Shown here: positions 2,990 through 15,476 of the stretch, in pieces
How the letters are laid out: every line of letters begins with the position of its first letter
Numbering within the stretch: position 1 is the stretch's first letter
Source: Paeniglutamicibacter sulfureus
GTDB lineage: Bacteria > Actinomycetota > Actinomycetes > Actinomycetales > Micrococcaceae
Direction: 5' to 3'
NCBI RefSeq assembly: GCF_039535115.1
Contig: NZ_BAAAWO010000001.1
Span: 2,542,001 to 2,606,000, forward strand
DNA length: 64,000 nt
Position numbers and translations under genes: made by a program
Notes under the pieces: generated by a model
Told to the model about the DNA's origin: nothing
The model's input: only the letters and a program-made list of their open reading frames with translations
Databases searched by the model: none

Positions 2990-3979
2990 TTAGCGCTTGG
3001 TGCTGGCTGACCTCGGGAGTTCGCCGGTGTTGATCATTTTGATCAACAGGGTGGTGAGGCGGTGCTCGGGGTCGGCAACGAGCGCGAGGGCCAGGAATTT
3101 CATGGCTTCGCTTCCCTTGCCGTCGATCCAGCGTGCCCATCCGACTCCGGCCAGCAGGTCGGTGCGGCTGGCTTCGGGGATGAATTCCAGCGCGGTATAG
3201 ACTGCGTCGGCACCCGTGAGGAAGAATTCCCAATCTTCCGGTGCTTTCTCCCCCATCAGGACGGCGCTAATCGTTCCGGCGTCGTCACTGGTGGTGGCCA
3301 GCGAGGCGAACAGCAGGTCACGCACGTTCTTGTTGGTGCAGATTCCGGCCAGCCATGCGGCGTGCTCGGGGCTGACCTTCCCGTTGTGGCGGTATCCGCC
3401 GACCATGTCGGCCAGCGTGCCGCGCACCACGGCGCGGGTTTCGGCGTCCTCGAAGCCCATGTGACGGGCGTCGTTGATGAATTTCTCGAGGTCGCTGATG
3501 CTTGCCGGGGTGGTGCAGGCCGGAATGTCTGCGGCCATCTTGGCGGCCTTGTTGGTGCTGAACATCAAGGCCAGTGCCGCGTTGGATTCGGCCACGGTGG
3601 AGAATTCCACCGCGTCGGTGGAATCGCCGTCGTAGTCCATGACCCATCCATCGGTGATGAGCACCGAGTTCCTGACGGGGCATCCCGCGCGGGCCAAGGT
3701 GTCGCCCAACGCGCGGAACTGCTGGGTGGTCATGGCCTTTTCGTTCTCGAAGCTCAACAGGATGACGCTGTTGGCATCACTCACGCGGTGAACGTACGTG
3801 GTGATTTGCTGTGCCCATTCCTCGGCGGGTGCTTCGGGGCTGGCATCCACGCGCAGGGTGGCCAGCAGGCCGTTGTCGTTCGTCAGCATGAGGACCACCG
3901 ACGAGGTGGGGATGAAGCCAATTCCGTGAATGGCGACTGCCGTGACCTCGGCCATGGTGGTTGCTTTGATGCTTTTCAT
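2990..3979 (-). CDS. DUF4192 domain-containing protein
   Basis: A 329-residue protein that fits DUF4192, a family of unknown function found almost only in Actinobacteria. Signs of this are a conserved beta-rich N-terminus with VVLMLTNDNG and LRVD segments, the block around VRNSVLITDGWVMDY, and a C-terminal helical repeat region. I start it at the ATG at 3979 because GAGGAAAACAACC directly precedes it. The longer open frame runs into a leader that is repeated elsewhere with single-base indels and so is not coding. DUF4192 genes are frequent on plasmids and ICEs of this group. It is expressed from repeat copy A. Confidence 0.85.
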   Translation of the reverse strand: MKSIKATTMAEVTAVAIHGIGFIPTSSVVLMLTNDNGLLATLRVDASPEAPAEEWAQQITTYVHRVSDANSVILLSFENEKAMTTQQFRALGDTLARAGCPVRNSVLITDGWVMDYDGDSTDAVEFSTVAESNAALALMFSTNKAAKMAADIPACTTPASISDLEKFINDARHMGFEDAETRAVVRGTLADMVGGYRHNGKVSPEHAAWLAGICTNKNVRDLLFASLATTSDDAGTISAVLMGEKAPEDWEFFLTGADAVYTALEFIPEASRTDLLAGVGWARWIDGKGSEAMKFLALALVADPEHRLTTLLIKMINTGELPRSASTKR

Positions 3980-4600
3980 GGTTGTTTTCCTCAATCTGTG
4001 GGTGAGGGGGATCGCGGAACCAGCCCCGCGCTTTGTCTCTCCCCCGCGTTTTTTGGTTGCTGGCGAAATGAAATGAGCGGACCGAGCACCAAGGAGCAGC
4101 AACCCGCAGGGCAGGTGCGGCCAATTGTTTGTGAGGAAATAAGCGCAGCGCCGATCAAAGAATTTGCCGGGCTGGCCCCGCAGCGCAGCAAGGGGCTTGT
4201 GCCCTTGGTGTCGGGCCATAAACTCCGAAGGACAGCAACCGAAAAAGGGGACGGCCGAAGGCCGGCACCTGATTCGCCGGAGGCGGATCAGGTCAACAGC
4301 CGCACCGCGCCAGCGGGGCGTCCGGTTCCTGGGTGCGAGCGAGCGAGTACCCAGGACTCCCTCAAACCCCCGGCTAACTGATCAACGCTCCCCCGCGGCT
4401 TTCCGGTCAGCTCATCCACGGCGCCGTCCACGCAAGTCGTCCATGCGCGGTAGCGGGTGTGGCGAGTCTGTGCGTCGGGGCGGTGGGTGAAGTGCAGTGC
4501 TGTGGGTGGGTGGACACGCCTGCGATGAAATGTCAGGCCATCCACAGCCAAACGAGGTGGCCGGAAACTCGTATGGCCGCCGCTTGCGAAGTGGCCAGCA
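3977..4600 (-). repeat. Leader repeat, copy A (about 625 bp)
   Basis: This stretch matches 7110-7736 nearly base for base. Its first part (3993-4373) also matches 5599-5983. Read on the minus strand it is the 5' leader of the DUF4192 gene and includes the ribosome-binding site. It contains hairpins: CCTGATTCGCC/GGCGGATCAGG at 4268-4292, a GGCC-loop-GGCC stem just beside it, and CCTGGGT/ACCCAGG at about 4328-4355. Copies differ by single-base indels (six versus seven Ts after GCG, ATGAGC versus ATGAAGC), so it is not protein coding. Confidence 0.85.
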
Positions 4601-4845
4601 TATGGCCGCCGCTTGCGAAGTGGCCAGCACATGGCCGCCGCTTGCGAAGTGGCCAGCATATGGCCGCCGCTTGCGAAGTGGCCAGCATATGGCCGCCGCT
4701 TGCGAAGTGGCCAGCAGTGGCGCACCGCGCCATCATGACCGAAGGTCAGCACATGGCCGCCGCTTGCGAAGTGGCCAGCAGTGGCGCACCGCGCCATCAT
4801 GACCGAAGGTCAGCACATGGCCGCCGCTTGCGAAGTGGCCAGCAC
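4573..4845. repeat. 29-bp iteron-like tandem repeats with 64-bp higher-order unit
   Basis: Units begin at 4573, 4602, 4631, 4660 and 4689, an exact 29-bp period. Further cores at 4753 and 4817 have a 64-bp period (29-bp core plus a 35-bp segment containing GCGCACCGCGCCATCATGAC). The core carries inverted arms TGGCC...GGCCA around CTTGCGAAG. A single core also occurs at 7709. There are no unique spacers, so it is not CRISPR. Iterons of a replication origin or partition site are the most likely reading, but no Rep gene is in the window. Confidence 0.8.
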
Positions 4846-4894
4846 ACCCAGGCTAGATACCGAGAGACCCGTGCGTGCAGTGGTCACTGTACTG

Positions 4895-4989
4895 CGCGCA
4901 GCGTCTGGCGGCCGGGGGAGCTGGCGGCGGAGGCCGCCCGCGCAACCAGGAAAAGGGGAGGCACACGCCTGTTCGGTGCGCCCCTCCCC
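4895..4989 (-). terminator. Orphan terminator block, copy 1
   Basis: A GC-rich segment (GGCGGCCGGGGGAGCTGGCG at its core) is followed by a stem whose minus-strand reading is GGGGAGGGGCGCAC, loop, GTGCCTCCCC, TTTT. It matches the blocks after the 106-aa gene and after dprA, but no gene lies between it and 5145. A gene that once ended here seems to be gone. Confidence 0.5.
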
Positions 4990-5002
4990 CGCCCGGCCCC
5001 TC

Positions 5003-5140
5003 GGCATTCCGCGGGGAGTGGATGATGCATTACTCATTCACTCAAACGAGTGTGTGGGTACAAGACGCGATGTTGCCGGGCCTGGCCATCGCGCAGCGTC
5101 GACGGCCGGGGGAGCTGGCGGCGGAGGCCGCCCGCTCCAC
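5003..5140. repeat. Direct repeat D, copy 1 (about 138 bp)
   Basis: This matches 5982-6122 with few differences. It includes the hairpin CACTC-AAAC-GAGTG (near 5038-5052) and the GC-rich terminator-block motif. In both places it directly follows a terminator in the minus-strand reading. Confidence 0.75.
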
Positions 5141-5144
5141 CACG

Positions 5145-5178
5145 AAAAAGGAGGGGACACCGAAACGGCGCCCCCTCC
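5145..5178 (-). terminator. Rho-independent terminator of the 106-aa gene
   Basis: On the minus strand GGAGGGG, a 15-nt loop and CCCCTCC are followed by TTTTT. It lies 12 bp after the stop codon of the 106-aa gene. Confidence 0.75.
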
Positions 5179-5190
5179 CCCACAGCGTGG

Positions 5191-5511
5191 TTACTGCTCT
5201 GCTACAGGGTTAGCTTCTTCTTCTATTGAGAACATGCCCAAAACGGCGTCCTGGATCTCGCCGATTCGCCACGTGAGGCGCTGGTCGCAGGCTTCCAAGA
5301 GGATCATGCCGGTGTCCTTGAAGTAGTCCTCTTCTTCTGGGCTGTCGGCTGGCATCAGAATTGGTGAGGAAAAGAGTCTTGCCTCAGAAGGGCTCACCGG
5401 ATATCGGATTGCTGCAATGGAATGGCAAATGGCGCGCAGTTCGAAGTCTCCTTGGAGTTCTGCCGGAACGTGCTCGTCAAGAACGGCCTGGAGCTGTTCG
5501 TTGGAAATCAT
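5191..5511 (-). CDS. Hypothetical protein (106 aa)
   Basis: An acidic 106-residue protein with no recognised domain, Cys pair or membrane segment. A GAGGACGAAGACG sequence precedes the ATG at 5511. It has its own terminator at 5145-5178, and repeat copy B lies about 90 bp upstream, so it is a single-gene unit driven by the same kind of leader as the DUF4192 and dprA genes. Function unknown. The context is plasmid or integrative-element backbone. Confidence 0.7.
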   Translation of the reverse strand: MISNEQLQAVLDEHVPAELQGDFELRAICHSIAAIRYPVSPSEARLFSSPILMPADSPEEEDYFKDTGMILLEACDQRLTWRIGEIQDAVLGMFSIEEEANPVAEQ

Positions 5512-5598
5512 CGTCTTCGTCCTCGTTCTCTAGGTAGTGGAAACTAGCCGTAGGACCATGCTATTCATGGCCTACCATGATTGCCGGTTCGCTTGAAG

Positions 5599-5983
5599 CA
5601 ATCTGTGGGTGAGGGGGATCGCGGAACCAGCCCCGCGCTTTGTCTCTCCCCCGCGTTTTTTTGGTTGCTGGCGAAATGAAATGAAGCGGACCGAGCACCA
5701 AGGAGCAGCAACCCGTAGGGCAGGCCGGCCAATTCTTTGTGAGGAAATAAGCGCAGCGCCGATCAAAGAATTTGTTGGACTGGCCCCGCAGCGCAGCAAG
5801 GGGCTTGTGCCCTTGGTGTCGGGCCATAAACTCCGAAGGACAGCAACCGAAAAAAGGGGACGGCCGCAGGCCGGCACCTGATTCGCCGAAAGGCGGATCA
5901 GGTCAACAGCCGCACCGCGCCAGCGGGGCGTCCGGTTCCTGGGTGCGAGCGAGCGAGTGCCCAGGACTCCCTCAAACCCCCGG
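5599..5983 (-). repeat. Leader repeat, copy B (about 385 bp)
   Basis: The shorter copy of the leader repeat, upstream of the 106-aa gene. It lacks the RBS/start-codon end that copies A and C share. The hairpin at 5877-5902 keeps both stem arms but has a GAAA-type loop instead of GGA. The neighbouring GGCC stem has loop GCA instead of GAA. Confidence 0.85.
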
Positions 5984-6122
5984 CATTCCGCCGGGAGTAG
6001 ATGATGCATTACTCATTCACTCAAACGAGTGCGTGAGTACAAGACGCGATGATGCCGGACCTGGCCATCGCGCAGCGTCGGCGGCCGGGGGAGCTGGCGG
6101 CGGAGGCCGCCCGCACCACCAC
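5982..6122. repeat. Direct repeat D, copy 2
   Basis: The second copy of the 5003-5140 repeat, again ending in the GC-rich block beside a terminator. It joins leader copy B to the dprA terminator. Confidence 0.75.
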
Positions 6123-6123
6123 G

Positions 6124-6158
6124 AAAAAGGAGGGGCACCCGATACGGCGTGCCCCTCC
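6124..6158 (-). terminator. Rho-independent terminator after dprA
   Basis: On the minus strand GGAGGGGCAC, a 10-nt loop, GTGCCCCTCC and TTTTT. The 10-bp stem is perfect and lies 13 bp beyond the stop codon. Confidence 0.9.
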
Positions 6159-6170
6159 CCCACTGCGTGG

Positions 6171-7112
6171 TTAGTGGTTGGTATCCAACAAGTTCAATGC
6201 CTCGGCCCCGGTGGTGACGAGGTCGGCGACTCCGTCTCGTATGAGGCGGTGCGTTCCTGCGGAATTGGCAGAGAATACCGAGCCCGGCACGGCTCCGACG
6301 TTTCGCCCCATGGTCTTGGCATGGTTGGCGGTGGTCATTGCCCCGGAGCGCCAGCGCGCCTCTGTTACGACGGTTGCGCCGGTCAGCCCGGCGATGAGTC
6401 GGTTTCGGGCGAGGAAGCGCCAGCGCGTCGGTGCTTTGCCCGGCGCTAATTCGCTGAGCACGGTTCCCCTTTCGGCGATGCGCGCGAGCAAATCGGCGTT
6501 GCCGACTGGGTAGTACCGGTCAAGGCCTCCTGCCATCACAGCAATGGTTGGGCACTCGTTGTTTTCGGCGCTGAGCGCGGCTTCGTGTGCGGCGGCGTCG
6601 ATTCCGTAGGCTCCACCGGAGACAACGGTTACTCCGCTGTTTGCCGCGTGGATGGAAATTTCAGCGGTTGCTTGGCGTCCGTATTCGGTGGCGTCTCGTG
6701 AGCCGACGATGGCCAGCGCTCGGTGCGTTTCGGGGATCCCGTTTTCCATGTTTCCGCGCCACCAGAGGCCGATCGGGTTGGACCGGGGGTCGTTGCCAGC
6801 GGTCGGCCAGTTTTCGTCCTCGGGGGTCAGGAATCCCCCGCCTAGACGCTCGATCAAGGCGAGGCTTGCCTGGGCGTGTTCGCGGCCCCGGTATTTGCCT
6901 TTCCAGACGTACAGGGCGTCCTCGAGGTTTCGTTCGTTGGTGCTCTTGTGGCTGTTGAATATCTCGCGTTCCGAGTCGGTCATGGTCGCGTCCTGTTCGA
7001 CTATCGCCAGTCCTTTCTCGGGACCGACTGCGGCCAGCAGGGCGCGCGCTGCTCCGTCGCAGGGTTCGGAGAAATCGGTCCATGCGGCGTAAGCGATGCG
7101 TTGGGTGTTCAT
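6171..7112 (-). CDS. dprA: DprA/Smf-family DNA-processing protein
   Basis: A 313-residue DprA-like protein with the Rossmann-type DprA core: GSRDATEYGRQ (about residue 135), VSGGAYGIDAAAHEAAL, AVMAGGLDRYYPVG, and RFLARNRLIAGLTGATVVTEA. DprA binds single-stranded DNA and loads RecA during natural transformation. Plasmid and ICE copies such as this one are usually paralogues whose role in incoming DNA is less clear. The first 100 residues diverge from chromosomal DprA. I start it at the ATG at 7112 with GAGGAAAACAACC upstream, identical to the DUF4192 gene start. It is transcribed behind leader copy C and closed by the terminator at 6124-6158. Confidence 0.88.
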   Translation of the reverse strand: MNTQRIAYAAWTDFSEPCDGAARALLAAVGPEKGLAIVEQDATMTDSEREIFNSHKSTNERNLEDALYVWKGKYRGREHAQASLALIERLGGGFLTPEDENWPTAGNDPRSNPIGLWWRGNMENGIPETHRALAIVGSRDATEYGRQATAEISIHAANSGVTVVSGGAYGIDAAAHEAALSAENNECPTIAVMAGGLDRYYPVGNADLLARIAERGTVLSELAPGKAPTRWRFLARNRLIAGLTGATVVTEARWRSGAMTTANHAKTMGRNVGAVPGSVFSANSAGTHRLIRDGVADLVTTGAEALNLLDTNH

Positions 7113-7736
7113 GGTTGTTTTCCTCCATCGGTGGGTGAGGGGGATCGCGGAACCAGCCCCGCGCTCTTTGTCTCTCCCCCGCGTTTTTTTGGTTGCTGGC
7201 GAAATGAAATGAAGCGGACCGAGCACCAAGGAGCATCAACCCGCAGGGCAGGCCGGCCAATTCTTTGTGAGGAAATAAGCGCAGCGCCGGACACAGAATT
7301 TGCCGGGCTGGCCCCGCAGCGCAGCAAGGGGCTTGTGCCCTTGCTGTCGGGCCATAAACTCCGAAGGACAGCAACCAAAAAAAGGGGACGGCCTTTAGGC
7401 CGGCACCTGATCCGCCGAAGGCGGATCAGGTCAACAGCCGCACCGCGCAGCGGGGCGCCCGGTTCCCTGGGTGCGAGCGAGCGAGTACCCAGGGGCCCTG
7501 GAACCGCCGGATAGCTGATCAACGCTCCCCCAGGGCTTTCCGGCCGGCTCATCCACGGCGCCGTCCACGCAAGTCGTCCATGCGCGGTAGCGGGTGTGGC
7601 GAGTCTGTGCGTCGGGGCGGTGGGAGAAGTGCAGTGCTGTGGGTGGGTGGACACGCCTGCGATGAAATGTCAGGCCATCCACAGCCAAACGAGGTGGCCG
7701 GAAACTCGTATGGCCGCCGCTTGCGAAGTGCCCAGC
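7110..7736 (-). repeat. Leader repeat, copy C (about 625 bp)
   Basis: Nearly identical to 3977-4600 and located directly upstream of dprA. The hairpin at 7406-7430 has a perfect stem (CCTGATCCGCC/GGCGGATCAGG) where copy A has a G-U pair. The GGCC stem carries loop TTTA. It ends in a single copy of the 29-bp iteron core. Confidence 0.85.
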
Positions 7737-7802
7737 AGTGGCACATCTCGCTCGATGTCGCATCTGCCGCTATTGGAGCTTCCCCTCGGCTCATAGCACT
7801 GG

Positions 7803-10371: not shown

Positions 10372-11022
10372 GTGCTCACCGTAAGCCACGATCCCGCCGC
10401 TGTCGAATTCCAGCTCTTCTCCCGCACGCTGAGCTGCCCCCGGTGCAGTGGATCCTTGAAGCCGTGGGGGTTTGGGCGGGAGCGGATCATCAGATACCAG
10501 GTGCCGGTCGTGAACCGCCGGGTTCTGCCACGCAGGGCCCGCTGCCATCAGTGCCAGAGCACCCATATCCTGCTGCCGGTGGCGTTGACCGCCCGTCGAG
10601 CCGATGCGGCTGCGGTGATCGCGCACGCCGTGGAATCGAGCATTGTCTCCGGAGCGGGGCACCGGAAAATCGCCGCGCAGCTGGGCCGCCCGCAGACCAC
10701 CGTCCGCGGATGGATCCGGGATTTCAGGGCCAACGCCCCGGCGATCCTGACGGAATTCACCGCACGGGTGCACCGCGCCACCGCCGAGTCCCTGGGATTC
10801 TGGCCGACTCCGGCGCCCACGGCCGCGGCCAACGCGCTGGGCATGCTCATGGCCCATGCCCGGGTGCTGGCCCACCACCACGGGGCAATCCCCGGCCAAG
10901 CCCCGGTCGCCAACGTGACGTGGCCTGTTGCCGCCCTGGCCGGGCATGGCCCATGGTTCTTCAGCGGTCGCCAGCGTCTCGAGGCGGTGCAACACCAGCC
11001 CGCCCTGCCGCAGGAAGCCTAA
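10372..11022 (+). CDS. DUF6431-type transposon accessory protein (zinc finger + HTH)
   Basis: A 216-residue protein with a GTG start. It has a zinc-ribbon (CPRC near residue 24 and CHQC near residue 58) followed by a helix-turn-helix (GHRKIAAQLGRPQTTVRGW, about residues 95-115). I recall the name DUF6431 for such proteins in front of DDE-recombinase/ATPase gene pairs in Micrococcaceae; the domain name is from memory. It probably helps recognise transposon ends or targets. The following transposase gene begins 88 bp downstream. Confidence 0.7.
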   Translation: MLTVSHDPAAVEFQLFSRTLSCPRCSGSLKPWGFGRERIIRYQVPVVNRRVLPRRARCHQCQSTHILLPVALTARRADAAAVIAHAVESSIVSGAGHRKIAAQLGRPQTTVRGWIRDFRANAPAILTEFTARVHRATAESLGFWPTPAPTAAANALGMLMAHARVLAHHHGAIPGQAPVANVTWPVAALAGHGPWFFSGRQRLEAVQHQPALPQEA

Positions 11023-11110
11023 CTGGGCCAAGGTGGGGTTCACGTGTCGTTTCCGGATCTCCGGCGAGGACATGGGTCCATGTTTCACCCCGCCGGAAGG
11101 AACCTTTTCG

Positions 11111-12658
11111 ATGATCAGTGCCTCGCTTCACCTACCCGATCAGCTTGTCCCTGCCCCGCCGAGACCACCCGCCGTGCCGCCGCAGGCCCCCATGGAGAGC
11201 ACCGGTGGCGAGGATGCCTTGCCGCAGCCGGCGGTGGTCGTTTCCCCGGTGCCGGCCAACCCTGCCCCGCGGGCCAACACCCCCTTGATGCGCAAGGAGC
11301 ACCGTGAGAAGATCGCCCTGTTCCGCTACCAAATCGTGCGGGCCGCGGCGGATCGGTCGTTGAGCTCCCGCCAGCGCGGACCCCTGGTCCGGGCCCTGGC
11401 CGAGGTTGATCATCCCTGGCCCTTCGGTGGCACCCGCCGCTTCTCCCGCGAAACCCTGGACCGCTGGATCAAAGCGTGGTGGGACCACGGGTTTGACGGG
11501 CTGAAACCGGACGAACGAGCCTGCGCCCCCTACATCGATTCGACCGTGCTGAGCCTGGCCGAAACCCTCAAACGGGAGAAACCCAACCGCACCGCCGCGC
11601 AGGTGAAGCGGATCATCACCGAAGCCATGGGCCAGGCACCCTCGGAGACCACGCTGCTGCGCTACTTCCGTGCCCGGAACATTTCCACCGGCACCCGCCC
11701 GGTCGCCACCGGTCGCTTCGAGACCGAGAAATCCAACGAGATCTGGGTCGGTGATGCCCTGCACGGGCCACGGATCGGTGGGCGAAAGACGTTTCTGTTC
11801 GCGTTCCTTGATGATCACTCCCGCATGGTCACCGCCGCCCGCTGGGCCTATGCCGAGGATGCCATCCGGCTTTCGGCGGTCCTGCGTCCGGCCCTGCAAA
11901 CCCACGGCATCCCCGAGGTCGCCTACCTGGACAACGGGGCCGCCATGAGTGACAAGTCGCTGGCGCGCACGTGCGCCAAACTCGGGATCAGGCTGGTGCA
12001 TTCGGCCCCCTACCGGCCCCAGGGACGGGGCAAGATCGAACGCTTCTTCAACACGGTCACCAGCCAGTTCCTCGGTGAAATCACGGTCACCGACACACCC
12101 ATGCTCCCGGGCACCGACCCGGAGGCCGGCTCGCAGATCAGCTCCCTTCACGAGTTGAACACGCTGTTCACCGCATGGGTGAACATGGTCTATCACCACC
12201 AACAACACACCAGCATCGGGCAAACGCCCCTGGCCCGATGGGAAGCATCCTGGGAACACCGCACCCCGGTGCGCAAATCCCTGGCCGAGATCCGTGAGGC
12301 GTTCCTCTGGTCAGATGTCCGCACGGTGACCAAGACCGGGACCGTATCCCTGCACTCAAACACCTACGAGGTCGACCCGCTGCTGGCCGGCACCAAGGTG
12401 GAACTGATCTATGACCCCTTCGACCTGGACGGGGAAATCACCGTGAACAACCACGAGGGAAACCCGGCGGGGACGGCCCGGCCACTGGATATCGGACGGC
12501 ACGTGCATTCCAAGGTCACCAACGCCGTGAAGGACAACGACTCCGCAACCAACATCAGCACCGGGATCAACTACCTGGACCTGGTCGCCACCCGGCACCG
12601 CGAATCCCTCACGGCCGCACCGATCAGCTTCGCCGAGATCCAGGAGCGTGCCCGTTGA
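11111..12658 (+). CDS. DDE-type transposase/integrase (Mu/IS481-like)
   Basis: A 515-residue DDE recombinase. It has an N-terminal helix-turn-helix region, then the rve core with catalytic D in WVGDALHGP, D in YLDNGAAMS and E in GKIERFFN, then a C-terminal Mu-transposase-like beta domain. I choose the ATG at 11111 because GGAAGGAACC lies 8 bp before it; residues read from further upstream are Pro/Arg noise. Its stop overlaps the start of the ATPase gene (TTGA), so the two are translationally coupled. Together they resemble TnpA/TnpB pairs of Tn5053/Tn552-type elements. Confidence 0.88.
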   Translation: MISASLHLPDQLVPAPPRPPAVPPQAPMESTGGEDALPQPAVVVSPVPANPAPRANTPLMRKEHREKIALFRYQIVRAAADRSLSSRQRGPLVRALAEVDHPWPFGGTRRFSRETLDRWIKAWWDHGFDGLKPDERACAPYIDSTVLSLAETLKREKPNRTAAQVKRIITEAMGQAPSETTLLRYFRARNISTGTRPVATGRFETEKSNEIWVGDALHGPRIGGRKTFLFAFLDDHSRMVTAARWAYAEDAIRLSAVLRPALQTHGIPEVAYLDNGAAMSDKSLARTCAKLGIRLVHSAPYRPQGRGKIERFFNTVTSQFLGEITVTDTPMLPGTDPEAGSQISSLHELNTLFTAWVNMVYHHQQHTSIGQTPLARWEASWEHRTPVRKSLAEIREAFLWSDVRTVTKTGTVSLHSNTYEVDPLLAGTKVELIYDPFDLDGEITVNNHEGNPAGTARPLDIGRHVHSKVTNAVKDNDSATNISTGINYLDLVATRHRESLTAAPISFAEIQERAR

Positions 12659-13470
12659 GCCAGATCGATAGCCTGCAAAGCTATTTTGGTTTTTCCCGGC
12701 TTCCTTTTGGCCGTGATATCCCGCCGGCGGCGCTGAACCAGCACCCCGGGCACCGCGAGGCGGTCGCCCGCATCTCCTGGTGCATCGACCAGCGCCGCAT
12801 GGGAGTGATCGCCGGGGAAGTCGGGGCCGGGAAGACCGTGGCGGCCCGCGCCGCACTGGCGCACCTGGAACCATCCCGCCACCAAATCATCTATGTCCCG
12901 GATCCGACCATCGGGATCCGCGGGATCCGTGCAGCGATTGTGACCGCGCTGGGGGCCACGCCCTCCTTCTTCTCCGGAGCCCTGGCCGCGCAGGCCGCGG
13001 CCCTGCTCGCCGGCGAACTCGACGAACGCTCTCGCCTGCCGGTGATTGTCATCGATGAAGCACACCTGCTGACCAACGAAGACCTCGAATCATTGAGGAT
13101 GCTCTCAAACGTCAGCATGGATACGGAGTCGCATTTCGCGTTGTTGCTCATCGGTCAACCCACCCTGCGGCGCCGGTTGAAACTGGCGGTGCTGGCCGCC
13201 CTGGACCAACGGATCGGGACCCGGTTCACCATCAACGGGATGAATCTGGAGGACACCAGCGACTACATCAAGGGACATCTTGGATTCGCAGGCCGAACTG
13301 ATCCCTTGTTCTCCGAAGATGCGATCACCGTCATCCATCAGGCGTCCCGTGGCTACCCGCGCACCGTGAACAACCTGGCCCTGGCCGCACTCATGGCCAC
13401 CCGCTCGGCCAAAGGCGCGATCGTGGACCAATCCGCGGCGCAGTCGGCGGTGAGCGAATTCAGCGAATAA
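12655..13470 (+). CDS. ExeA/TniB-like AAA ATPase of the transposition module
   Basis: A 271-residue AAA ATPase with Walker A GEVGAGKT (residues 54-61) and Walker B VIVIDEAH (about residues 130-137). Such ATPases choose target DNA and activate the partner DDE transposase (MuB/TniB/ExeA type). It starts at a TTG that overlaps the transposase stop codon by 4 bp. A strong hairpin terminator follows 45 bp after the stop. Confidence 0.88.
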   Translation: MSQIDSLQSYFGFSRLPFGRDIPPAALNQHPGHREAVARISWCIDQRRMGVIAGEVGAGKTVAARAALAHLEPSRHQIIYVPDPTIGIRGIRAAIVTALGATPSFFSGALAAQAAALLAGELDERSRLPVIVIDEAHLLTNEDLESLRMLSNVSMDTESHFALLLIGQPTLRRRLKLAVLAALDQRIGTRFTINGMNLEDTSDYIKGHLGFAGRTDPLFSEDAITVIHQASRGYPRTVNNLALAALMATRSAKGAIVDQSAAQSAVSEFSE

Positions 13471-13943: not shown

Positions 13944-14162
13944 GTAGAGTTACACGTTGGGTTTCACTTACGCAAATCCGTCCCGATCCGGTTCGCATAA
14001 CCCTACCGGCGGATCGCGGAGCAAGAATTCCCGGTAGGGGCGGAGGACCCATTCAACCGTTCCTGGTCTTGGACCACGGATCTTGGGGTGAAGCTGAGTC
14101 CACTATGTAGGCTCAGCCGAGTTGATCTCATGACTCGAATCCGACAGCTAACTTCGCAGGCG
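13944..14162 (+). ncRNA. c-di-AMP riboswitch (ydaO/yuaA class), copy 1
   Basis: The 5' leader of the M23 gene carries the class signature: a GGGCGGAGGACCCA segment, GGGGTGAAGCTGA, and the 3' consensus GACAGCTAACTTCGCAGGC at 14144-14162. In Actinobacteria this riboswitch typically precedes cell-wall hydrolase genes and turns them off when c-di-AMP is high. The second copy at 15252 shares the same blocks. Confidence 0.88.
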
Positions 14163-14181
14163 ATACATGAGAGGTAGACAT

Positions 14182-15251: not shown

Positions 15252-15456
15252 TAAGTGATCGGGGATCAACCCTGTTCACCGCCGCGGGAAGTGCCGAGCA
15301 CTGCCAGCCCACGGTGTCCGTTCACTTACTCGTTTGGCAGTGGCGGGGGACCCACTTTCGGTTTCCACACCAGGAAGCCTTGGGGTTAAGTGGTTCGGCC
15401 TGGCGGCCGGATTGCCGAGTGACTCCCACTCGAACCCGACAGCTCACCTCGCAGGC
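15252..15456 (+). ncRNA. c-di-AMP riboswitch (ydaO/yuaA class), copy 2
   Basis: The leader of the NlpC/P60 gene has the same arrangement as copy 1: GGGGGACCCAC at about 15346-15355, GGGGTTAAGTGG, and GACAGCTCACCTCGCAGGC at about 15438-15456. A TATATT hexamer at 15241 may be the -10 element. Confidence 0.88.
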
Positions 15457-15476
15457 ATCAGGAGAGGCATTACCAC

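What the first reader, a model, noticed from the sequence alone, without database searches (positions are those of the whole stretch)
3977..7736. A long, structured noncoding leader is repeated three times, once before each of three unrelated genes
Copies at 3977-4600, 5599-5983 and 7110-7736 precede DUF4192, the 106-aa gene and dprA, all on the minus strand. Stems are kept while loops differ: the CCTGAT...ATCAGG hairpin has loops GGA, GAAA and GAA and a U-G to C-G change; the GGCC stem has loops GAA, GCA and TTTA. Single-base indels between copies rule out a shared protein. This pattern fits a selected RNA (or DNA) structure, perhaps a shared regulatory leader co-ordinating backbone genes. 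I know of no described RNA family with this form.
Basis: partly seen in the sequence, partly recalled or inferred. Interest (0 to 1): 0.78.

Follow-up and report, generated by a model that had tools for sequence, protein, structure and literature searches.

The report
Single-stranded DNA promoters of Arthrobacter plasmids
A 200-base sequence repeated in front of several plasmid genes in soil bacteria looks like a switch that works only while the plasmid is entering a new cell as a single DNA strand: that strand folds into a ready-made promoter, so that helper genes can be read before the second strand is made.

Summary
The three repeats are real, but the structure belongs to the strand opposite to the mRNA. 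In 91 non-redundant relatives two helices carry, in mRNA letters, 181 A·C mismatches against 19 G·T; on the window's + strand those are G·T wobbles. So the template DNA strand folds, not an mRNA leader. Its 3' arm holds TTG-N16-NANNNT: A(-11) and T(-7) occur in 124 of 124 copies anchored without using the T (of 136), and the 16-nt spacing in 14 of 16 anchored loci (20 tried) from six other families. The -10 box lies in a predicted open loop between a -35/spacer duplex and a 14-bp duplex. Related elements precede parB, dprA and DUF4192 genes directed towards the relaxase in 13 of 13 assessable plasmids; oriT-like anatomy makes the folded strand the transferred one (inference). Best reading: an actinobacterial single-stranded-DNA promoter family of the leading region, working like Frpo, unrelated in sequence. 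The repeats themselves were noted in 2016 (seen through PMC10494377); the promoter reading was not found in searches. The window copies look like a chromosomal remnant. No experiment was done.

The parts
4048..4246 (+). Element 1, folded strand (template of the DUF4192 gene)
   Evidence: R2 hit 154.5 bits; R1 hit on the complement 4055-4239
5656..5854 (+). Element 2, folded strand (template of the 106-aa gene)
   Evidence: R2 hit 154.2 bits; DNA fold of 5650-5860 -48.7 kcal/mol, z -4.26, against -38.9, z -2.01 on the other strand
7184..7382 (+). Element 3, folded strand (template of dprA); -35 predicted unpaired here
   Evidence: R2 hit 152.1 bits; pairing probability of TTG 0.06
4197..4202 (+). 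-35-like box TTGTGC, element 1
   Evidence: predicted pairing of the hexamer 0.91
4219..4224 (+). -10-like box TAAACT, element 1, in unpaired loop
   Evidence: predicted pairing 0.17
5805..5810 (+). -35-like box TTGTGC, element 2
   Evidence: predicted pairing of the hexamer 0.94
5827..5832 (+). -10-like box TAAACT, element 2, in unpaired loop
   Evidence: predicted pairing 0.18
7333..7338 (+). -35-like box TTGTGC, element 3
   Evidence: predicted pairing of the hexamer 0.34
7355..7360 (+). -10-like box TAAACT, element 3
   Evidence: predicted pairing 0.16
5657..5670 (+). Closing helix H0, 5' arm (element 2; template around and beyond the predicted start)
   Evidence: H0 pairing 0.99; H0 covaries between lineages
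5841..5855 (+). Closing helix H0, 3' arm (element 2)
5688..5711 (+). Helix P1, 5' arm (element 2), partner of -35 and spacer (limits set by eye)
5724..5777 (+). Helix P3 with conserved GAAATAAGCG tip (element 2), upstream of -35 (limits set by eye)
4252..4264 (-). Terminator-like hairpin just upstream of element 1 in gene direction (also 5861-5873 and 7389-7402)
   Evidence: 8 sites found in the stretch, 4.0 expected from shuffles
2990..3979 (-). DUF4192 protein gene after element 1
   Evidence: PF13830 1.1e-21
5191..5511 (-). 106-aa gene after element 2, no Pfam match
6171..7112 (-). dprA-like gene after element 3
   Evidence: PF02481 9.7e-65

Best explanation
The repeat is a single-stranded-DNA promoter of a conjugative plasmid's leading region, here stranded in a chromosome. 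When the plasmid enters a recipient as one strand (T-strand), each copy folds back on itself. The 3' arm supplies the non-template strand: TTGNNN (-35) inside a duplex, a 16-nt mostly paired spacer, and NANNNT (-10) in an unpaired internal loop, followed by a ~14-bp duplex (H0). This imitates an RNA polymerase open complex. Polymerase starts near the edge of H0, uses the 5' arm as template and runs on along the single strand towards the T-strand's 5' end (oriT side), reading parB, dprA, DUF4192 and similar genes at once. Second-strand synthesis destroys the fold, and in duplex DNA the same boxes point away from the gene, so expression stops. Shown here: homology, covariation, strand of the fold, box positions, gene orientation. 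Inferred: transferred strand (from oriT-like anatomy), recognition by polymerase, start site, timing in the recipient, off-switch.
For: Strand: 181 A·C against 19 G·T in coding letters over helices P1 and P3 of 91 copies, and 535 C·T/C·C against 20 A·G/G·G, with all non-Watson-Crick pairs scored alike; isolated mismatches between Watson-Crick pairs alone 87 against 13 (27 against 11 distinct contexts) and 171 against 18. The template strand folds better than its complement beyond a shuffle null in 74 of 91 with DNA and 60 of 91 with RNA parameters. Boxes: of 136 copies 124 could be anchored by a pattern without the T; A(-11) and T(-7) in 124 of 124, TANNNT in 107, T[T/A]GNNN in 121 (with a fallback anchor 130 copies). 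TTG-N16-NANNNT in 14 of 16 anchored loci (20 tried; 11 genomes) of 6 other families, no other spacing from 8 to 26 in more than 2 loci. Predicted -35 mostly paired in 53, -10 mostly open in 50, both plus H0 paired in 47 of 56. The second -35 base covaries with its partner (columns 64/201). Context: 57 elements on 19 plasmids, first annotated start 63-83 nt past the element in 46 of 57; relaxase on the same strand, ahead, in 13 of 13 assessable plasmids. oriT-like GGAGCAAGCT plus inverted repeat in 15 loci, oriented so that the folded strand would be the transferred one.
Against: No transcript or binding data. The boxes are weak by the E. coli consensus: a sigma-70 scan found 0 sites on either strand of 3900-7800. 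Copy 3 has a predicted unpaired -35. L146 (f45) and L150 (f17) have spacing 15 instead of 16; 4 of 20 distant loci could not be anchored. The predicted open -10 and paired -35 are nearly the same on the complementary strand (0.40 and 0.77 against 0.33 and 0.84), so that prediction says nothing about strand. Relatives are not independent, so counts of cells overstate events. The excess of G·T on one strand could partly come from deamination of exposed single strands, though that would not explain the purine-purine mismatches. The nic strand is inferred. The host genome has no PF03432 or PF08751 relaxase, so these very copies may be inert.
Confidence: 0.8

Rival explanations
1. Structured cis-regulatory RNA leader (riboswitch-like) in the mRNA of each gene.
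For: Conserved structure just upstream of start codons at a nearly constant distance (46 of 57 at 63-83 nt, tables).
Against: G·T/A·C and mismatch spectra point to the complementary strand; terminator-like hairpin just before the core in gene direction in all three window copies; no Rfam match at threshold.
Confidence: 0.05
2. Single-strand initiation site (ssi/sso): RNA polymerase or primase binds the folded T-strand to make a primer for second-strand synthesis; transcription of the gene is secondary or absent.
For: Same fold and strand evidence; by its title Frpo itself serves both transcription and primer RNA synthesis (Masai and Arai 1997, title seen in reference lists).
Against: Several copies per plasmid (up to 5), most of them placed just before a gene start (46 of 57); a primer site would need neither.
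Confidence: 0.1
3. Ordinary duplex promoter on the + strand making an antisense or non-coding RNA away from the genes.
For: In duplex DNA the boxes do read that way.
Against: Does not explain covariation of both arms, because such an RNA would start after the structure.
Confidence: 0.03
4. Partition, replication or recombination site (parS, iteron, attC-like), with the genes adjacent by chance.
For: parB is one of the genes; an earlier paper groups the repeats with partitioning and conjugation (PMC10494377 passages).
Against: Placement before different genes with fixed spacing and direction; -35/-10 pattern.
Confidence: 0.02

Closest known systems
Frpo / ssi single-stranded promoters of F and ColIb-P9
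   Same: Hairpin in the T-strand with -35 and -10; two copies in F; leading region; genes incl. ssb and a ParB-like gene read towards oriT; umuDC genes near (PMC11541004 and PMC9849209, passages; F region)
   Different: No sequence similarity (best E 0.1; R2 best E 0.3); different size and fold; actinobacterial hosts; conserved P3 tip; GNA-type mini-hairpins; -10 in a predicted open loop
[quoted passage not shown]
   Same: Same place and genes, so almost certainly the same repeats
   Different: Known here only from citing papers (PMC10494377, PMC6305408, passages); no strand, fold or promoter function is stated in the passages seen; the 2016 paper was not read
EGeRS1/2 of Bacillus pLS20-family plasmids
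   Same: Repeated sequences before establishment operons of a Gram-positive plasmid (PMC8708921 passages)
   Different: Its authors held ssDNA promoters highly unlikely for EGeRS1: transferred strand is non-template and no promoter was seen in the fold; here both appear to go the other way
Single-strand origins (sso), e.g. of ICEBs1
   Same: Folded single strand that may recruit a polymerase (recalled)
   Different: Start second-strand synthesis; not known to me as placed before several genes (PMC4595007, listing and start of abstract only)

Membership tests
Frpo-type ssDNA promoter (functional class) | Fold formed by the strand that serves as template | tested here: met
Frpo-type ssDNA promoter (functional class) | -35 and -10 on the 3' arm at promoter spacing | tested here: met
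   weak by E. coli consensus, 0 sites
Frpo-type ssDNA promoter (functional class) | Genes directed towards relaxase/oriT | tested here: met
   13 of 13 plasmids with a relaxase in the stretch read, 6 of 19 not assessable
Frpo-type ssDNA promoter (functional class) | Template strand is the transferred strand | tested here: inconclusive
   oriT-like anatomy in 15 loci supports it, but nic is not mapped
Frpo-type ssDNA promoter (functional class) | RNA synthesis from ssDNA but not dsDNA | not testable with these tools
   needs in vitro transcription and mating experiments
Frpo sequence family | Sequence similarity to F Frpo1/Frpo2 | tested here: not met
Cis-regulatory RNA | Wobbles in the RNA-sense strand | tested here: not met
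Cis-regulatory RNA | Known Rfam family | tested here: not met
Single-strand origin (sso/ssi) | Priming of complementary strand synthesis | not testable with these tools

The most novel reading that the evidence does not exclude
Conjugative elements of Actinobacteria have their own, independently evolved class of single-stranded-DNA promoter: the entering strand folds into a preformed open complex (paired -35 and spacer, unpaired -10, paired downstream duplex), giving several genes a burst of expression that is switched off by second-strand synthesis. It would be a second, sequence-unrelated solution to zygotic induction, spread over many genera.
Probability: 0.7. Interest if true: 0.88.

Novelty: new variant of a known kind. 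Interest (0 to 1): 0.8.

Why it matters
In the papers seen here, promoters read from entering single-stranded DNA are shown for F and ColIb-P9 and predicted for plasmids with similar sequences; the surveys searched mainly by similarity to those sequences (PMC11541004, which added a consensus search in four islands; PMC12826799) and would hardly find this family. A family found by covariance model in 142 of 395 Micrococcaceae genomes and, more weakly, in further families would show that Gram-positive conjugative plasmids use the same trick with an unrelated sequence, would assign a function to unexplained plasmid repeats, and would mark which unknown genes (DUF4192, DUF3560, DUF3846, the ~143-aa proteins) act first in a new host. 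The strand-bias test (G·T against A·C) is a general way to tell an RNA structure from a structure in the complementary DNA strand.

Tried and rejected
RNA leader: rejected on the strand tests. Rfam families: none at threshold. A shared small protein: ORFs across the copies are not kept in frame. T-box resemblance of the hairpin next to the genes (noticed by eye, motif recalled): no Rfam hit, dropped. First mismatch count used poor patterns and scored only 7 of 91 sequences; replaced. First box-spacing test used a faulty anchor (12 loci anchored, 8 of them with spacing 16); replaced (16 of 20). In the box census 6 of 130 copies had been anchored by a fallback pattern that contains the T itself, which separates; two of those six (one of L113, and L034) look misanchored. 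Relaxase near the window: none seen by eye among ORFs of 180 aa or more in the left flank L023 (L024 and L025 were not read through), none by Pfam PF03432 or PF08751 in the whole genome. Homologues of the 499-aa ORF at 188-1687: 20 plasmids, mostly Streptomyces, below 60% identity, no bearing. Known nic motifs: one CATCCTGC in L110, none of the four patterns in the other six stretches. Genome scans used strict filters and scored 6 candidates per genome, so counts are lower bounds. Seven opposite-strand echoes and one weak hit were dropped from the 65 rows. The script listed only motif hits followed by an inverted repeat, and left out small redundant loci.
Full report
1. The observation. The window holds three copies of a ~380-bp sequence on the minus strand, before a DUF4192 gene, a 106-aa gene and a dprA-like gene; copies 1 and 3 are 96% and 94% identical to copy 2. 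Copies 1 and 3 share a further ~240 bp upstream. No other place in the 4.57-Mb single-contig genome matches at E<=0.001. Rfam gives nothing at threshold for the region, and the relaxed search gave five matches at E 0.34 or worse. One letter matters: the U-G pair it saw is a T·G on the + strand; on the minus strand, where an mRNA would lie, it is A·C.

2. Relatives. The sequence recurs in 6 plasmid records of Arthrobacter and Citricoccus and in 8 of 15 genomes of the genus, own genome included. A covariance model from 17 copies (R1) finds it in 142 of 395 Micrococcaceae genomes and 17 of 32 genera, in many with 2 to 6 matches (6 is the cap), often within a few kb on one strand. With one relative as query, 63 PLSDB plasmids match, 45 of them typed as conjugative. 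Weaker matches occur in further families of the order (20 of 396 genomes, 10 of them outside the family) and class (9 of 394, 6 of them outside the family, with model R2). Filters make all of these lower bounds.

3. Covariation. Among 56 diverse copies 24 of 41 consensus pairs show changes on both sides that keep the pair. Examples: the closing helix GGTTGCTG/CAGCAACC becomes GCCTGCTG/CAGCAGGC or GTTTGCTG/CAGCAAAC, and P1 and P3 are rewritten between lineages.

4. Which strand folds. I took helices P1 and P3 in 91 non-redundant copies (from 136) and aligned the two arms with every non-Watson-Crick pair scored alike. In coding-strand letters there are 86+95 A·C and 4+15 G·T pairs, and 535 C·T/C·C against 20 A·G/G·G. 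On the other strand these are G·T wobbles and G·A/G·G mismatches. Part of these lie in conserved internal loops, so I also counted only single mismatches between Watson-Crick pairs: 87 against 13 (27 against 11 distinct contexts) and 171 against 18. H0 agrees: 14 G·T against 4 A·C in template letters. Folding alone agrees too: beyond a dinucleotide-shuffle null the template strand is the more stable in 74 of 91 with DNA parameters and 60 of 91 with RNA parameters; for element 2 it is -48.7 kcal/mol (z -4.26) against -38.9 (z -2.01). So the selected structure is in the template strand, the window's + strand. Loops fit DNA: the mini-hairpin after the -10 box has a GNA triloop in 67 of 91 copies and P4 in 45 of 91; that GNA triloops are specially stable in DNA is recalled, not from a call. 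In F plasmid, the positive control, the strand complementary to ssb also folds better in the Frpo2 region (-119.1 against -111.6, and likewise in two shorter stretches; no shuffle null).

5. Promoter boxes. On the 3' arm of the folded strand stands T[T/A]GNNN, 16 nt, NANNNT. Of 136 copies 124 could be anchored on the sequence that follows, by a pattern without the T: T(-7) in 124, A(-11) in 124, TANNNT in 107, T[T/A]GNNN in 121. A fallback pattern anchored six more, five with A(-11) and four with T[T/A]G; six stayed unanchored. Of the non-redundant 91 the first pattern anchored 82, with A(-11) and T(-7) in 82 and T[T/A]G in 79. The 16-nt spacing is built into these counts. That -11 and -7 are the bases sigma region 2 reads is recalled. 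The second -35 base covaries with its partner (A-U 31, U-A 21 of 56), so TTG becomes TAG and stays paired. In 20 loci of other families the spacing was left free from 8 to 26 with an anchor outside the boxes: 16 loci could be anchored; 14 of them, from 11 genomes and six families, have TTG-N16-NANNNT, the other two have spacing 15, and no other spacing occurs in more than two. By the partition function with DNA parameters, over 56 copies the -35 TTG is mostly paired in 53, the -10 mostly unpaired in 50, and both with H0 paired in 47; the complementary strand shows nearly the same profile, so this bears on architecture, not on strand. In the window, elements 1 and 2 have -35 pairing 0.91 and 0.94, -10 pairing 0.17 and 0.18, H0 0.98 and 0.99; in element 3 the -35 TTG is predicted unpaired (0.06). 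The picture is an open complex made of one strand: -35 and spacer duplex, open -10, downstream duplex. Against it: an E. coli-consensus sigma-70 scan finds no site on either strand.

6. Where it sits. On 19 annotated plasmids R2 finds 57 elements (65 rows less 7 opposite-strand echoes and 1 weak hit), always one strand per plasmid. By hand from the tables, the first annotated start codon lies 63-83 nt beyond the element in 46 of 57; of these 46, 10 are parB, 14 DUF4192, 7 dprA and 15 unnamed. The other 11 have starts annotated closer, farther or inside the element, an insertion, or no gene. Where a relaxase gene was in the stretch read (13 plasmids: pChr15, pA2H2, NicSoilB4, FB24 plasmid 2, pSI-1, pJ337-114, LT1, YC-RL1, pJ349-116, FW305-BF8, SD-2, p232, pDCT5), it is on the same strand and ahead in 13 of 13, though 25 kb ahead in pA2H2; the other 6 plasmids could not be judged. 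Genes for SSB lie on the same strand between parB and the relaxase in LT1, FW305-BF8 and p232 (SSB Pfam hit for FW305-BF8), and umuD and/or Y-family polymerase genes near the elements in pA40H2, pA2H2, NicSoilB4, D5-1 and FW305-BF8, as described for anti-defence islands (PMC11541004 passages).

7. Which strand is transferred. Upstream of mobC in six MOBP plasmids the otherwise divergent sequence keeps CGGAGCAAGCT next to an inverted repeat. GGAGCAAGCT with an inverted repeat 1-4 nt on, differing in sequence between loci, occurs in 15 loci (hits without a repeat were not listed). In 14 of them the crude element motif lies upstream in the same direction; L108 has one more downstream, L068 and L110 one crude match in the other direction each, and in L166 the crude motif was absent but both R2 hits lie upstream. 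Since relaxase repeats lie 5' of nic on the nicked strand (recalled), the strand that leaves first would be the complement of the element-driven genes: their template. This is inference until nic is mapped.

8. The mechanism follows from 4-7 and is the Frpo principle: T-strand hairpin, transcription towards the T-strand's 5' end, off when duplex. Terminator-like hairpins stand before each window core in gene direction (8 sites in the stretch against 4.0 expected), which could insulate each unit. The window copies are probably a remnant: the genome has no PF03432 or PF08751 relaxase, and a transposase gene lies close by (10928-12658).

9. Known and new. The repeats were noticed before: PMC10494377 (passages) cites Mihasan and Brandsch 2016 for DNA repeats 5' of Duf4192, DprA and ParB with a syntenic T4SS in 12 plasmids; that paper is not held and I have not read it. 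A promoter, strand or fold reading of them was not found in searches (PMC open-licence papers only) or in the passages read of PMC11541004, PMC9849209, PMC8708921, PMC12826799, PMC12614216, PMC11730352, PMC6305408 and PMC10494377. Similarity to Frpo is absent. I file it as working like Frpo, not as a member of the Frpo sequence family.

Noticed in passing
window 4574-4844 and 7711: A unit TGGCCGCCGCTTGCGAAGTGGCCAGCA repeated 7 times (spacing 29 or 64) upstream of element 1 and once upstream of element 3; could be an iteron or protein-binding array.
   Followed up: partly
window 14005-14178 and 15306-15471: Two c-di-AMP riboswitches (Rfam RF00379) before an M23 peptidase and an NlpC/P60 protein.
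   Followed up: no
window 7184-7382: Element 3 carries a P3 5' arm of one sequence type and a partner of another, and its -35 is predicted unpaired; looks like a gene-conversion chimera or decay.
   Followed up: partly
L167 (p232) 9764, 13447, 16843: Three copies on one plasmid score identically with R2, suggesting homogenisation between copies.
   Followed up: no
15 loci, e.g. L069 23123, L073 7382, L078 10507: Probable oriT of related plasmids: GGAGCAAGCT plus a variable inverted repeat at a nearly fixed offset.
   Followed up: partly
L006 8150-8569: An annotated gene (WP_176705007.1) starts inside the element; its true start is probably after it, so the record is likely misannotated.
   Followed up: no
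window 10928-13470: A transposition pair near the leading-region remnant: an rve/Mu-C-terminal transposase by Pfam and an ORF that by eye looks like its ATPase partner.
   Followed up: no
window 4359-4600 and 7496-7737: A further 240-bp repeat upstream of copies 1 and 3 only, 95% identical, function not studied.
   Followed up: no
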